From assembly GCF_003049685.1 (NCBI RefSeq), contig NZ_PYSY02000002.1, forward strand, positions 868,001 to 932,000: DNA of 64,000 nt, given 5' to 3'. The DNA comes from Brucella pituitosa. GTDB lineage: Bacteria; Pseudomonadota; Alphaproteobacteria; Rhizobiales; Rhizobiaceae. Positions within the stretch are counted from its first letter, which is position 1. Each line of letters starts with the position of its first letter. A program made the translations under genes and the position numbers. The notes beneath the pieces are model-generated. The model was not told the origin of the DNA and searched no databases. It saw only the letters and a list, made by a program, of their open reading frames with translations. This document shows positions 32,685 to 60,725 of the stretch, piece by piece.

Positions 32685-32707
32685 TTGGAATACTCATTAT
32701 ACCAGTT
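32685..32707. promoter_or_regulatory. Candidate GntR operator ahead of oiaX
   Basis: TTGGAATACTCATTATACCAGTT shares TGGAATACTCATT and ATACCAGTT with the stretch upstream of apnO (35376-35405). TGG and CCA ends form an imperfect inverted repeat. It lies in the divergent gap between the GntR gene and oiaX. Confidence 0.55.
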
Positions 32708-32769
32708 CGCACTCAAACACCATGCGCTTATTCTAGGCGCAACAAAAACCGTGAGTGACGACAATTCCG

Positions 32770-34026
32770 ATGAACATCTGTTTGACCTATCGCATTGAGA
32801 CCACCGGCAGCATCGAACAGATGGCAGCCAAGATCGCGAGCGATCAGTCGACCGGCACTTTCGTCGCTATTCCAGGAGAAACCGAAGAGTTGAAGGCGCG
32901 CGTCGCAGCACGCGTGCTCGAAATTCGCCCGCTTGAAGACGCAACGGTGCCTGCCTGGCCGGAGCTTGAGCCAGGTCACGGGCCGCTCAAGCGCGCCGAT
33001 GTCGATATTGCTTTTCCGCTTGATGCTATCGGCACCGATTTAGCAGCGCTGATGACAATTGCCGTTGGCGGCGTCTATTCGATCAAGGGCATGACAGGCA
33101 TCCGCGTTGTCGACATGAAGCTACCGGAAGCCTTCAAAAGCGCGCATCCCGGCCCACAGTTCGGCATCACCGGAAGCCGCCGTCTCACCGGCGTTGAAAA
33201 GCGTCCGATCATCGGCACCATCGTCAAGCCAGCACTCGGTCTGCGTCCACATGAGACAGCAGAACTCGTAAGCGAACTCATTGAGTCGGGCGTCGATTTC
33301 ATCAAGGACGATGAAAAGCTGATGAGCCCGGCCTACTCGCCGCTTAAAGAGCGCATCGCCGCGATCATGCCGCTCATTCTCAATCACGAACAGAAGACCG
33401 GCAAAAAGGTGATGTATGCCTTTGGCATCTCCCATGCCGATCCTGACGAGATGATGCGCAATCATGACATGGTGCTAGAGGCTGGCGGCAATTGCGCCGT
33501 GGTCAACATCAACTCGGTTGGCTTTGGCGGCATGAGCTTCTTGCGCAAGCGCTCGGGCCTCGTGCTTCACGCCCATCGCAACGGTTGGGACATCCTGACC
33601 CGCAACCCGGGCGCCGGCATGGATTTCCGTGTTTATCAGCAGTTCTGGCGGCTGCTCGGCGTCGATCAGTTCCAGATCAACGGTATTCGCGTGAAATATT
33701 GGGAGCCGGACGAAAGTTTCGTCAATTCGTTCAAGGCCGTCAGCACGCCCCTGTTTGATCCGTCCGATTGTCCGCTTCCTGTCGCCGGTTCCGGGCAATG
33801 GGGTGGACAGGCACCGGAAACCTATGAGCGCACGGGCCGCACGACGGACCTGCTTTATCTGTGCGGCGGCGGCATTGTCAGCCATCCGGGTGGCCCGGCA
33901 GCCGGTGTTCGCGCCGTGCAACAGGCATGGGAAGCAGCAGTCGCTGGCATCCCGCTTGAAACCTATGCAACGGACCATCCTGAACTTGCAGCTTCGCTCG
34001 CGAAATTCGGGAAAGGTGGCGAGTAA
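32770..34026 (+). CDS. oiaX: RuBisCO-like 3-oxo-isoapionate-4-phosphate decarboxylase
   Basis: This 418-residue RuBisCO large-subunit-like protein keeps the carbamylated-lysine metal site (IKDDE, Lys179, Asp181, Glu182) and the TIVKPALGL lysine, but lacks the RuBisCO loop-6 lysine motif (SGQWGGQAPETYE there instead), so it should not fix CO2. In the D-apiose pathway, OiaX turns 3-oxo-isoapionate 4-phosphate into L-erythrulose 1-phosphate and CO2. The neighbours oiaK, apnO, apsD and apnL make this assignment strong. I use ATG 32770; GTG 32755 is possible, and neither has a clear ribosome site. Its stop overlaps the oiaK start (TAATG). Confidence 0.87.
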   Translation: MNICLTYRIETTGSIEQMAAKIASDQSTGTFVAIPGETEELKARVAARVLEIRPLEDATVPAWPELEPGHGPLKRADVDIAFPLDAIGTDLAALMTIAVGGVYSIKGMTGIRVVDMKLPEAFKSAHPGPQFGITGSRRLTGVEKRPIIGTIVKPALGLRPHETAELVSELIESGVDFIKDDEKLMSPAYSPLKERIAAIMPLILNHEQKTGKKVMYAFGISHADPDEMMRNHDMVLEAGGNCAVVNINSVGFGGMSFLRKRSGLVLHAHRNGWDILTRNPGAGMDFRVYQQFWRLLGVDQFQINGIRVKYWEPDESFVNSFKAVSTPLFDPSDCPLPVAGSGQWGGQAPETYERTGRTTDLLYLCGGGIVSHPGGPAAGVRAVQQAWEAAVAGIPLETYATDHPELAASLAKFGKGGE

Positions 34027-59486: not shown

Positions 59487-60257
59487 ATGTCGAAATTCTG
59501 GGTAGGTACGAGCTGGAAAATGAACAAGACGCTTGCGGAAGCACGCGTTTTCGCGAACGCACTGAAGGACGCCGATGCTGACCGTTCGGCAGACATTCAG
59601 CGCTTTGTCATTCCACCCTTTACCTATGTTCGTGAAGTCAAAGATATTCTGGCAGATACGTCCGTGAAGGTCGGCGCGCAGAACATGCACTGGGCTGATC
59701 AGGGTGCATGGACCGGCGAAATTTCGCCACTGATGCTCAAAGATTGCAATCTCGATATCGTTGAACTCGGCCATTCCGAGCGTCGCGAACATTTTGGTGA
59801 AACCAATGAAACCGTTGGTCTCAAGGTTGAAGCAGCCGTTCGCAACGGCCTGATCCCGCTTATCTGCATTGGCGAAACGCTGGAAGACCGCGAAAGCGGA
59901 CGCGCAGCAGAAGTGCTGGCAGAAGAAGTCCGTGGTGCACTTTCCAAGCTTTCTGACGAGCAGAAAAAGGCCGAAATCCTGTTTGCCTATGAGCCGGTAT
60001 GGGCAATTGGTGAAAACGGTATTCCAGCCTCGGCAGATTATGCCGATGACCGTCAGGCCGAAATTATTGCTGTTGCCGAAGGCATTCTTGGCCGTCGCGT
60101 GCCTTGCCTCTATGGCGGCTCGGTCAATCCCGGCAACTGTGAAGAACTCATTGCCTGCCCGCATATCGATGGCCTGTTTATCGGTCGTTCGGCATGGAAC
60201 GTGGAAGGCTATCTCGACATTCTGGCCAAATGCGCCAAGAAAATTCAGGCTAATTAA
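59487..60257 (+). CDS. eryH: Tetrulose phosphate isomerase (TpiA2)
   Basis: EryH is a triose-phosphate-isomerase homologue of 256 residues that isomerises a 3-tetrulose 4-phosphate (L-erythrulose 1-phosphate in current enzyme naming) to D-erythrulose 4-phosphate. The TIM active-site residues are kept: Lys in WVGTSWKMNKTL, His in LDIVELGHSERREHFGE and Glu in ILFAYEPVWAIGE; the phosphate loop is LYGGSVNPGN. It probably also serves the apiose pathway, whose product is L-erythrulose 1-phosphate. eryI follows 12 bases later. It should not be taken as the main glycolytic TpiA. Confidence 0.9.
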   Translation: MSKFWVGTSWKMNKTLAEARVFANALKDADADRSADIQRFVIPPFTYVREVKDILADTSVKVGAQNMHWADQGAWTGEISPLMLKDCNLDIVELGHSERREHFGETNETVGLKVEAAVRNGLIPLICIGETLEDRESGRAAEVLAEEVRGALSKLSDEQKKAEILFAYEPVWAIGENGIPASADYADDRQAEIIAVAEGILGRRVPCLYGGSVNPGNCEELIACPHIDGLFIGRSAWNVEGYLDILAKCAKKIQAN

Positions 60258-60269
60258 AGGAGTTACCCC

Positions 60270-60725
60270 ATGAAAGTAGCAGTAGCAGGCGACAGCGCCG
60301 GTGAAGGTCTGGCCAAGGTTCTTGCAGATTATCTGAAGGATCGTTTTGAAGTGTCCGAAATCTCCCGCACGGACGCTGGCGCAGATACATTCTACGCAAA
60401 CCTCTCGGACCGTGTTGCATCCGCCGTTCTCGACGGCACCTATGACCGCGCCATTCTGGTTTGCGGCACTGGCATCGGCGTGTGCATTGCCGCCAACAAG
60501 ATTCCGGGTATCCGCGCAGCACTGACGCACGACACCTATTCGGCAGAACGTGCAGCACTCTCCAACAACGCGCAGATCATCACCATGGGCGCACGCGTCA
60601 TCGGTTCGGAAGTTGCAAAGACCATTGCTGATGCGTTCCTCGCACAGACGTTTGACGAAAATGGCCGTTCGGCTGGCAATGTCGACGCGATCAACGAAGT
60701 CGACGCCAAGTACAACAAGTGCTGA
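60270..60725 (+). CDS. eryI: D-erythrulose 4-phosphate isomerase (RpiB)
   Basis: This 151-residue RpiB/LacAB-family isomerase converts D-erythrulose 4-phosphate to D-erythrose 4-phosphate, which enters the pentose phosphate pathway. Motifs are MKVAVAGDSAGEGLAKVLAD (phosphate site), AILVCGTGIGVCIAANKIPGIRAAL with the catalytic Cys, and SNNAQIITMGARVIG. It ends the eryR-eryH-eryI transcript, behind which stand a repeat hairpin and a strong terminator. Confidence 0.9.
   Translation: MKVAVAGDSAGEGLAKVLADYLKDRFEVSEISRTDAGADTFYANLSDRVASAVLDGTYDRAILVCGTGIGVCIAANKIPGIRAALTHDTYSAERAALSNNAQIITMGARVIGSEVAKTIADAFLAQTFDENGRSAGNVDAINEVDAKYNKC

What the first reader, a model, noticed from the sequence alone, without database searches (positions are those of the whole stretch)
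32685..60725. D-apiose operon placed beside the erythritol locus, sharing a metabolite
oiaX, oiaK, apnO, apsD and apnL predict breakdown of D-apiose to L-erythrulose 1-phosphate, but no isomerase for this product lies in the apiose operon. eryH and eryI, 16 kb away, encode enzymes that convert L-erythrulose 1-phosphate to D-erythrulose 4-phosphate and then D-erythrose 4-phosphate. A plant branched sugar and an animal/plant polyol would thus drain through one terminal module. If so, apiose use needs EryH and EryI, and cross-regulation by EryD, EryR and the GntR protein should exist.
Basis: partly seen in the sequence, partly recalled or inferred. Interest (0 to 1): 0.85.

Follow-up and report, generated by a model that had tools for sequence, protein, structure and literature searches.

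The report
Two sugar pathways share one exit
In this bacterium the genes for eating a plant cell-wall sugar (apiose) stop one product short, and the two enzymes that would finish the job appear to be borrowed from the neighbouring erythritol genes, a reading that the gene content of related genomes supports.

Summary
A D-apiose operon (31872-43515), orthologous to that of Rhizobium etli CFN 42, lies 16 kb from eryH-eryI. R. etli keeps a TIM and an RpiB gene (LerI/DerI type) between oiaK and apnO; the window operon lacks them, and its genome holds one RpiB-fold gene (eryI) and two TIM genes (tpiA, eryH).

The shared-exit idea is supported, by comparison only. Of 394 family genomes, 86 of 87 with OiaX have DerI/EryI; among those without EryC, 12 of 13 with OiaX and 15 of 280 without. 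Of 80 named OiaX genomes, 10 of 10 without EryC carry their own pair in the apiose operon, against 12 of 70 with EryC; in the family sample this contrast is weaker (6 of 13, 6 of 74). Independent pairs are too few for significance (3 agree, 0 oppose, 1 tie).

Cross-regulation by the GntR/NanR protein is not supported: its likely operator occurs once in the genome, before oiaX. A different repeat precedes eryR-eryH-eryI, so EryR sensing the shared tetrulose phosphate is a better guess.

LerI/DerI use in apiose breakdown is known (recalled); replacement by the ery pair is the new part. Adjacency is not essential.

The parts
31872..32576 (-). GntR/NanR-type regulator of the apiose operon
   Evidence: NCBIfam NF003011 349.9 bits, cut-off 260; 79.9% to the R. 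etli gene at the same place
32686..32704 (+). probable operator TGGAATACTCATTATACCA
   Evidence: exact in 70 of 80 named OiaX loci, within 2 mismatches in 80 of 80; once in own genome with up to 3 mismatches
32755..34026 (+). OiaX, RuBisCO-like 3-oxo-isoapionate-4-phosphate decarboxylase; product L-erythrulose 1-phosphate (product recalled)
   Evidence: NF042437 790.1 bits, cut-off 700
34026..35372 (+). OiaK-like kinase
   Evidence: NF042436 467.7 bits, under cut-off 700; R. etli gene 473.2; 67.5% identical to it
35439..36266 (+). ApnO-like oxidoisomerase (PGDH_C domain)
   Evidence: PF16896 241.9 bits; 88.7% to R. etli gene
36326..37300 (+). apiose ABC transporter binding protein
   Evidence: best PDB relatives 5ibq and 4ry0, about 520 bits; 79.6% to R. 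etli gene
37378..38022 (+). DUF2291 lipoprotein of the transporter
   Evidence: PF10054 231 bits
38026..39603 (+). apiose ABC transporter ATPase
39600..40667 (+). apiose ABC transporter permease
40670..41704 (+). ApsD-like apiose dehydrogenase (Gfo/Idh/MocA)
   Evidence: PF01408; 79.9% to R. etli gene
41701..43515 (+). ApnL, D-apionate lactonase
   Evidence: NF049900 1046.8 bits, cut-off 750
44152..48313 (-). second polyol set: GlpD-like dehydrogenase, FGGY kinase, DeoR regulator
   Evidence: 30% to EryB and 27% to EryA; recurs beside ery genes in other genera
48418..52781 (-). erythritol ABC transporter genes (binding protein, permease, ATPase, DUF2291)
   Evidence: core genes 48-52% identical to the apiose transporter
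53495..57590 (+). eryA, eryB, eryC (true eryC start probably some 12 codons later, as relatives align from there)
   Evidence: EryC matches PF01261
57633..58568 (+). eryD
58592..58634 (.). possible EryR operator: two inverted copies of TCACAAAATCACA
   Evidence: 0.07 matches expected by chance, 2 found; ATCACA sites before eryR in 42 of 53 loci
58642..59442 (+). eryR, DeoR-family regulator
   Evidence: within 3 kb of DerI in 28 of 37 ery loci and 23 of 40 other loci
59487..60257 (+). [quoted passage not shown]
   Evidence: 518 bits over 254 residues to PDB 11ef, deposited under that name; 70.7% to the R. etli apiose-operon TIM, 35% to own TpiA
60270..60725 (+). [quoted passage not shown]
   Evidence: NF051858 254.5 bits, cut-off 240
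60840..63152 (-). fba and fbp, possibly the next step for erythrose 4-phosphate

Best explanation
The apiose operon takes D-apiose to L-erythrulose 1-phosphate. That compound is the one EryC makes in erythritol breakdown, so EryH and EryI finish both pathways, giving D-erythrose 4-phosphate. Apiose joins after EryC, so it should need EryH and EryI but not EryA, EryB or EryC. Shown by sequence: gene content, no other RpiB-fold gene, and the pattern across genomes. Inferred: the flux itself, and that EryR rather than the apiose regulator induces eryH-eryI by sensing a tetrulose phosphate common to both pathways.
For: R. etli CFN 42, whose apiose operon is orthologous, keeps TIM and RpiB genes between oiaK and apnO; the window lacks them. 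One RpiB-fold gene and one LerI-like TIM in the own genome, both in the ery cluster. EryH gives 518 bits to a PDB entry named L-erythrulose-1-phosphate isomerase. DerI in 86 of 87 OiaX genomes and 37 of 307 without OiaX; without EryC, 12 of 13 against 15 of 280. Among 80 named OiaX genomes, an own DerI in the apiose operon in 10 of 10 without EryC and 12 of 70 with it, p = 4e-7 uncorrected for kinship. DerI lies within about 6 kb of EryC in 69 of 70 named EryC genomes. Pathway chemistry: passages.
Against: No growth or enzyme data. Kinship-corrected pairs are too few (3 agree, 0 oppose, 1 tie, p 0.25). In the family sample the contrast is weaker: a dedicated copy in 6 of 13 OiaX genomes without EryC and 6 of 74 with it, p = 0.002 uncorrected; of those 13, 6 have DerI elsewhere and 1 none. 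That one, G328, has no RpiB-fold match at all. A 3.1-Mb MAG, G839, has EryC but no DerI match. Twelve of 70 named EryC genomes keep a dedicated DerI all the same. DerI occurs without OiaX or EryC in 15 of 280 genomes, so it has other uses. The apiose regulator has no likely site at eryH-eryI.
Confidence: 0.8

Rival explanations
1. Another isomerase, such as the housekeeping TpiA, handles L-erythrulose 1-phosphate, and EryH-EryI are not needed for apiose.
For: TpiA is a TIM relative present in the genome; one OiaX genome has no RpiB-fold match.
Against: TpiA is 35% identical to EryH and would leave the second step open; DerI is present in 86 of 87 OiaX genomes.
Confidence: 0.07
2. L-erythrulose 1-phosphate leaves by another route, for example cleavage by an aldolase or dephosphorylation, so the pathways do not meet.
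For: Aldolase side activities that make or cleave erythrulose 1-phosphate are on record (passages).
Against: No such gene in the operon; the named genomes without EryC carry the isomerase pair inside the apiose operon in 10 of 10 cases.
Confidence: 0.05
3. The two loci are neighbours only because sugar genes gather in catabolic islands; the closeness has no functional meaning.
For: Both use related transporters; in the genus 3 of 6 OiaX genomes have EryI within 30 kb and 3 do not.
Against: DerI within 30 kb of OiaX in 21 of 74 genomes without a dedicated copy, in 9 of 29 genera, against about 1% per genome by a naive count. In 6 of the 21 (g94) that copy is not beside EryC. This bears on closeness only; sharing does not require it.
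Confidence: 0.08

Closest known systems
D-apiose operon of Rhizobium etli CFN 42 (plasmid p42f; RuBisCO-like OiaX pathway, Carter and co-workers 2018, recalled; paper not held)
   Same: Same regulator, enzymes and transporter in the same order, 58-89% identical gene by gene
   Different: R. etli carries its own TIM and RpiB genes between oiaK and apnO, and dhaK-dhaL after apnL; the window operon has no such pair and is followed by a cupin gene
Brucella/Rhizobium erythritol pathway (EryA-EryB-EryC-EryH-EryI)
   Same: Complete cluster with transporter, eryD, eryR and fbp-fba, as described for B. abortus (passages)
   Different: Here eryH-eryI would also serve apiose; the word apiose occurs 0 times in PMC3599248, PMC3522698 and PMC10190533 (listing)
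eryR-tpiB-rpiB suboperon found outside ery loci (PMC3599248, passages)
   Same: A unit seen apart from eryABC; here eryR stands by DerI in 23 of 40 loci that are neither ery nor apiose
   Different: The passages seen give no substrate for the second copy; apiose is a candidate

Membership tests
OiaX | NCBIfam NF042437 score over 700 | tested here: met
   790.1 bits
OiaK | NCBIfam NF042436 score over 700 | tested here: not met
   467.7 bits; the R. etli gene also fails, 473.2; called OiaK-like here
ApnL | NCBIfam NF049900 score over 750 | tested here: met
   1046.8 bits
ApnO / ApsD | orthology to the R. etli operon genes; activity | tested here: inconclusive
   88.7% and 79.9% identity at the same places; no dedicated family model reached; activity not testable
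[quoted passage not shown]
   254.5 bits; the closest PDB entry, 5ifz, is named ribose 5-phosphate isomerase
LerI / EryH (L-erythrulose-1-phosphate isomerase) | closest solved relative of that name, and distance from TpiA | tested here: met
   518 bits to PDB 11ef; 35% to own TpiA. NCBIfam names it triose-phosphate isomerase (442.7 bits, cut-off 293), as it does the R. etli gene
Brucella-type erythritol locus | eryABCD, eryR, eryH, eryI with eryEFG-type transporter | tested here: met
shared terminal module | apiose growth depends on eryH and eryI | not testable with these tools
   needs mutants or purified enzymes

The most novel reading that the evidence does not exclude
EryR-EryH-EryI is a self-standing, self-regulated sink for tetrulose phosphates that moves between loci: EryR senses L-erythrulose 1-phosphate or its product, so any pathway that makes it (erythritol, apiose, and perhaps a third polyol through the FGGY kinase and GlpD-like gene at 44152-47414) switches on its own exit without a shared regulator. 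Lineages can then do without the isomerase pair in the apiose operon once the sink is present.
Probability: 0.35. Interest if true: 0.65.

Novelty: new variant of a known kind. Interest (0 to 1): 0.5.

Why it matters
It predicts, from gene content, that one pair of isomerases serves two substrates: a plant cell-wall sugar and a polyol. It offers a job for isomerase copies seen outside erythritol loci, and a simple genetic test in Rhizobium. It also warns that a mutant in 'erythritol' isomerase genes may have effects unrelated to erythritol.

Tried and rejected
Cross-regulation through the apiose regulator: looked for its site in the window, the own genome and 92 DerI loci; found only at loci holding apiose genes. 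Wider class search for OiaX at E up to 1e-200: 1 of 385 genomes, the window's own, so nothing could be said outside the family. The main papers on apiose and on the Brucella erythritol enzymes are not held; what is said of them is recalled or rests on passages of other papers. Of the papers cited I saw passages only. Searches for print that links apiose with erythritol breakdown showed none in their listings, but most were capped (15 of 82 listed, 20 of 12,291, 15 of 739), several listed papers with 'apiose catabolism' or 'apionate' were not opened (PMC11747546), and subscription journals are absent. So novelty in print is weakly tested. The LerI tree has long branches that meet; only its count of label changes (6, of which 4 forced by well-supported branches) is of use.

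Choices that affect counts. In one search I moved G357 by hand into the dedicated class (its pair lies 1.8 kb from oiaX); loci cut short by contig ends (G312, G275, G272) fell into 'elsewhere'. A second DerI of G408, at 238.2 bits just under the cut-off, was not counted as a match. The 80 named genomes are the best 80 of 428 relatives, so they are close kin. The ATCACA pattern was chosen after seeing the window's own site, so its counts are post hoc.

Full report
What is there. The window lies in a 5.5-Mb genome of the Rhizobiaceae (GTDB sense), on contig 2. Among its nearest OiaX relatives, at 97-98% identity, are Ochrobactrum chromiisoli, Brucella pseudogrignonensis and Brucella sp. 21LCYQ03, so it is a member of the Brucella/Ochrobactrum group; I give no species. 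From 31872 to 43515 lies an apiose operon: regulator, OiaX, an OiaK-like kinase, ApnO-like and ApsD-like enzymes, ApnL and an ABC transporter. From 48418 to 60725 lies an erythritol cluster with transporter, eryABCD, eryR, eryH and eryI, followed by fba and fbp.

The missing step. In R. etli CFN 42 the same operon, 58-89% identical gene by gene, holds a TIM and an RpiB gene between oiaK and apnO. The window operon does not. The own genome has one RpiB-fold gene, eryI, and two TIM genes: tpiA, and eryH, which is 70.7% identical to the R. etli operon TIM and 35% to TpiA. EryH gives 518 bits to a PDB sequence deposited as L-erythrulose-1-phosphate isomerase. Turning the Fischer projection shows that L-erythrulose 1-phosphate is D-3-tetrulose 4-phosphate, the EryH substrate in the Brucella scheme (legend passage); passages of another paper say the same in the other naming. 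So apiose would enter after EryC.

Comparison across genomes. In a sample of 394 family genomes, OiaX is over its cut-off in 87, DerI in 123, and EryC is found in 101. DerI is in 86 of the 87 OiaX genomes and 37 of the other 307. In genomes without EryC it is in 12 of 13 with OiaX and 15 of 280 without; with EryC, in 74 of 74 with OiaX and 22 of 27 without. The exception, G328, has no RpiB-fold match. By place, of the 87: only an ery copy in 31, one copy with ery and apiose genes within 9 kb in 3, a dedicated copy only in 8, dedicated plus ery in 4, ery plus elsewhere in 2, elsewhere only in 38, none in 1. A dedicated copy is found in 6 of 13 without EryC and 6 of 74 with it, p = 0.002. The second sample is the 80 named genomes reached through OiaX: DerI in 79 (50 of 50, 29 of 30), EryC in 70 (43 of 50, 27 of 30). 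The 10 without EryC all have both isomerases inside the apiose operon; of the 70 with EryC, 12 have a dedicated DerI there and 9 of these the TIM as well. The two samples overlap in part. Kinship is a real limit: on the OiaX tree 4 independent pairs were found on well-supported branches, 3 in the expected direction, none against, 1 tie, p 0.25.

Neighbourhood. DerI lies within 30 kb of OiaX in 21 of 74 genomes without a dedicated copy, in 9 of 29 genera; in one of these genera, g94, with 6 of the 21 genomes, that copy is about 80 kb from EryC and so not an ery copy. Ery genes lie inside the fetched stretch around OiaX in 5 of 80 named loci (L064, L066, L074, L093, L108). Layouts differ: apiose operon before the ery transporter in the window, after eryI in Brucella endophytica L064. 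In the window's genus 3 of 6 OiaX genomes have the closeness. So closeness recurs but is not required.

Regulation. TGGAATACTCATTATACCA stands before oiaX, exact in 70 of 80 named loci and within 2 mismatches in 80 of 80. It occurs once in the own genome with up to 3 mismatches and, with up to 4, in none of the 77 DerI loci classed as ery or other. Before eryR another element stands: two inverted copies of TCACAAAATCACA at 58592-58634 (0.07 expected). ATCACA sites occur within 160 bases upstream of eryR in 42 of 53 loci (20 of 23 genera), against 1 of 40 for eryB, 1 of 38 for eryC, 2 of 33 for eryD, 4 of 33 for eryA, 1 of 12 for oiaX and 3 of 14 for apnO; random stretches of the same loci gave 2.2 on average, at most 7. 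The pattern was chosen after the window's site was seen. eryR stands by DerI in 28 of 37 ery loci and 23 of 40 other loci, but 1 of 12 apiose-operon copies. In B. abortus, erythritol raised eryR, eryH and eryI more than eryABC by RNA-seq (5.7-9.2 against 3.1-3.9), but not by array for all, and by PCR eryB (9.25) exceeded the TIM gene (8.05) (table passages). That DeoR-family regulators often sense sugar phosphates is recalled. Together this makes EryR the better candidate for sensing a shared intermediate; it is not shown.

Verdict. The metabolite, the missing pair and the likely borrowing are well supported by sequence. The shared-regulator idea is not. Use of LerI and DerI in apiose breakdown is known (recalled, and consistent with the R. 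etli operon); replacement of the pair by the erythritol one, with genomes showing both states, is the part I did not see in the paper listings, which are capped and incomplete.

Noticed in passing
window 44152-48313: A GlpD-like dehydrogenase, FGGY kinase and DeoR regulator between the two loci recur beside ery genes in several genera; by stereochemistry (own derivation) an L-threitol-type polyol would give L-erythrulose 1-phosphate without EryC, a possible third input.
   Followed up: partly
window 60840-63152: fba is found near DerI in 15 of 92 loci over 6 genera; with fbp it could turn erythrose 4-phosphate plus DHAP into sedoheptulose 7-phosphate. The neighbourhood is on record for Brucella and Mesorhizobium (passages).
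   Followed up: partly
window 36326-40667 and 48418-52781: The apiose and erythritol transporters are paralogous sets, core genes 48-52% identical, each with a DUF2291 lipoprotein (34% identical).
   Followed up: no
L034:30915-32585; L135; L138; L165: dhaK-dhaL genes lie beside apiose or isomerase genes in many genomes, perhaps an L-erythrulose kinase feeding the same isomerases; not among the genes annotated here at 29-64 kb of the window.
   Followed up: no
L163-L164 (G094) and five other g94 genomes: A lone eryR-lerI-derI unit 19-21 kb from oiaX while EryC is about 80 kb away.
   Followed up: no
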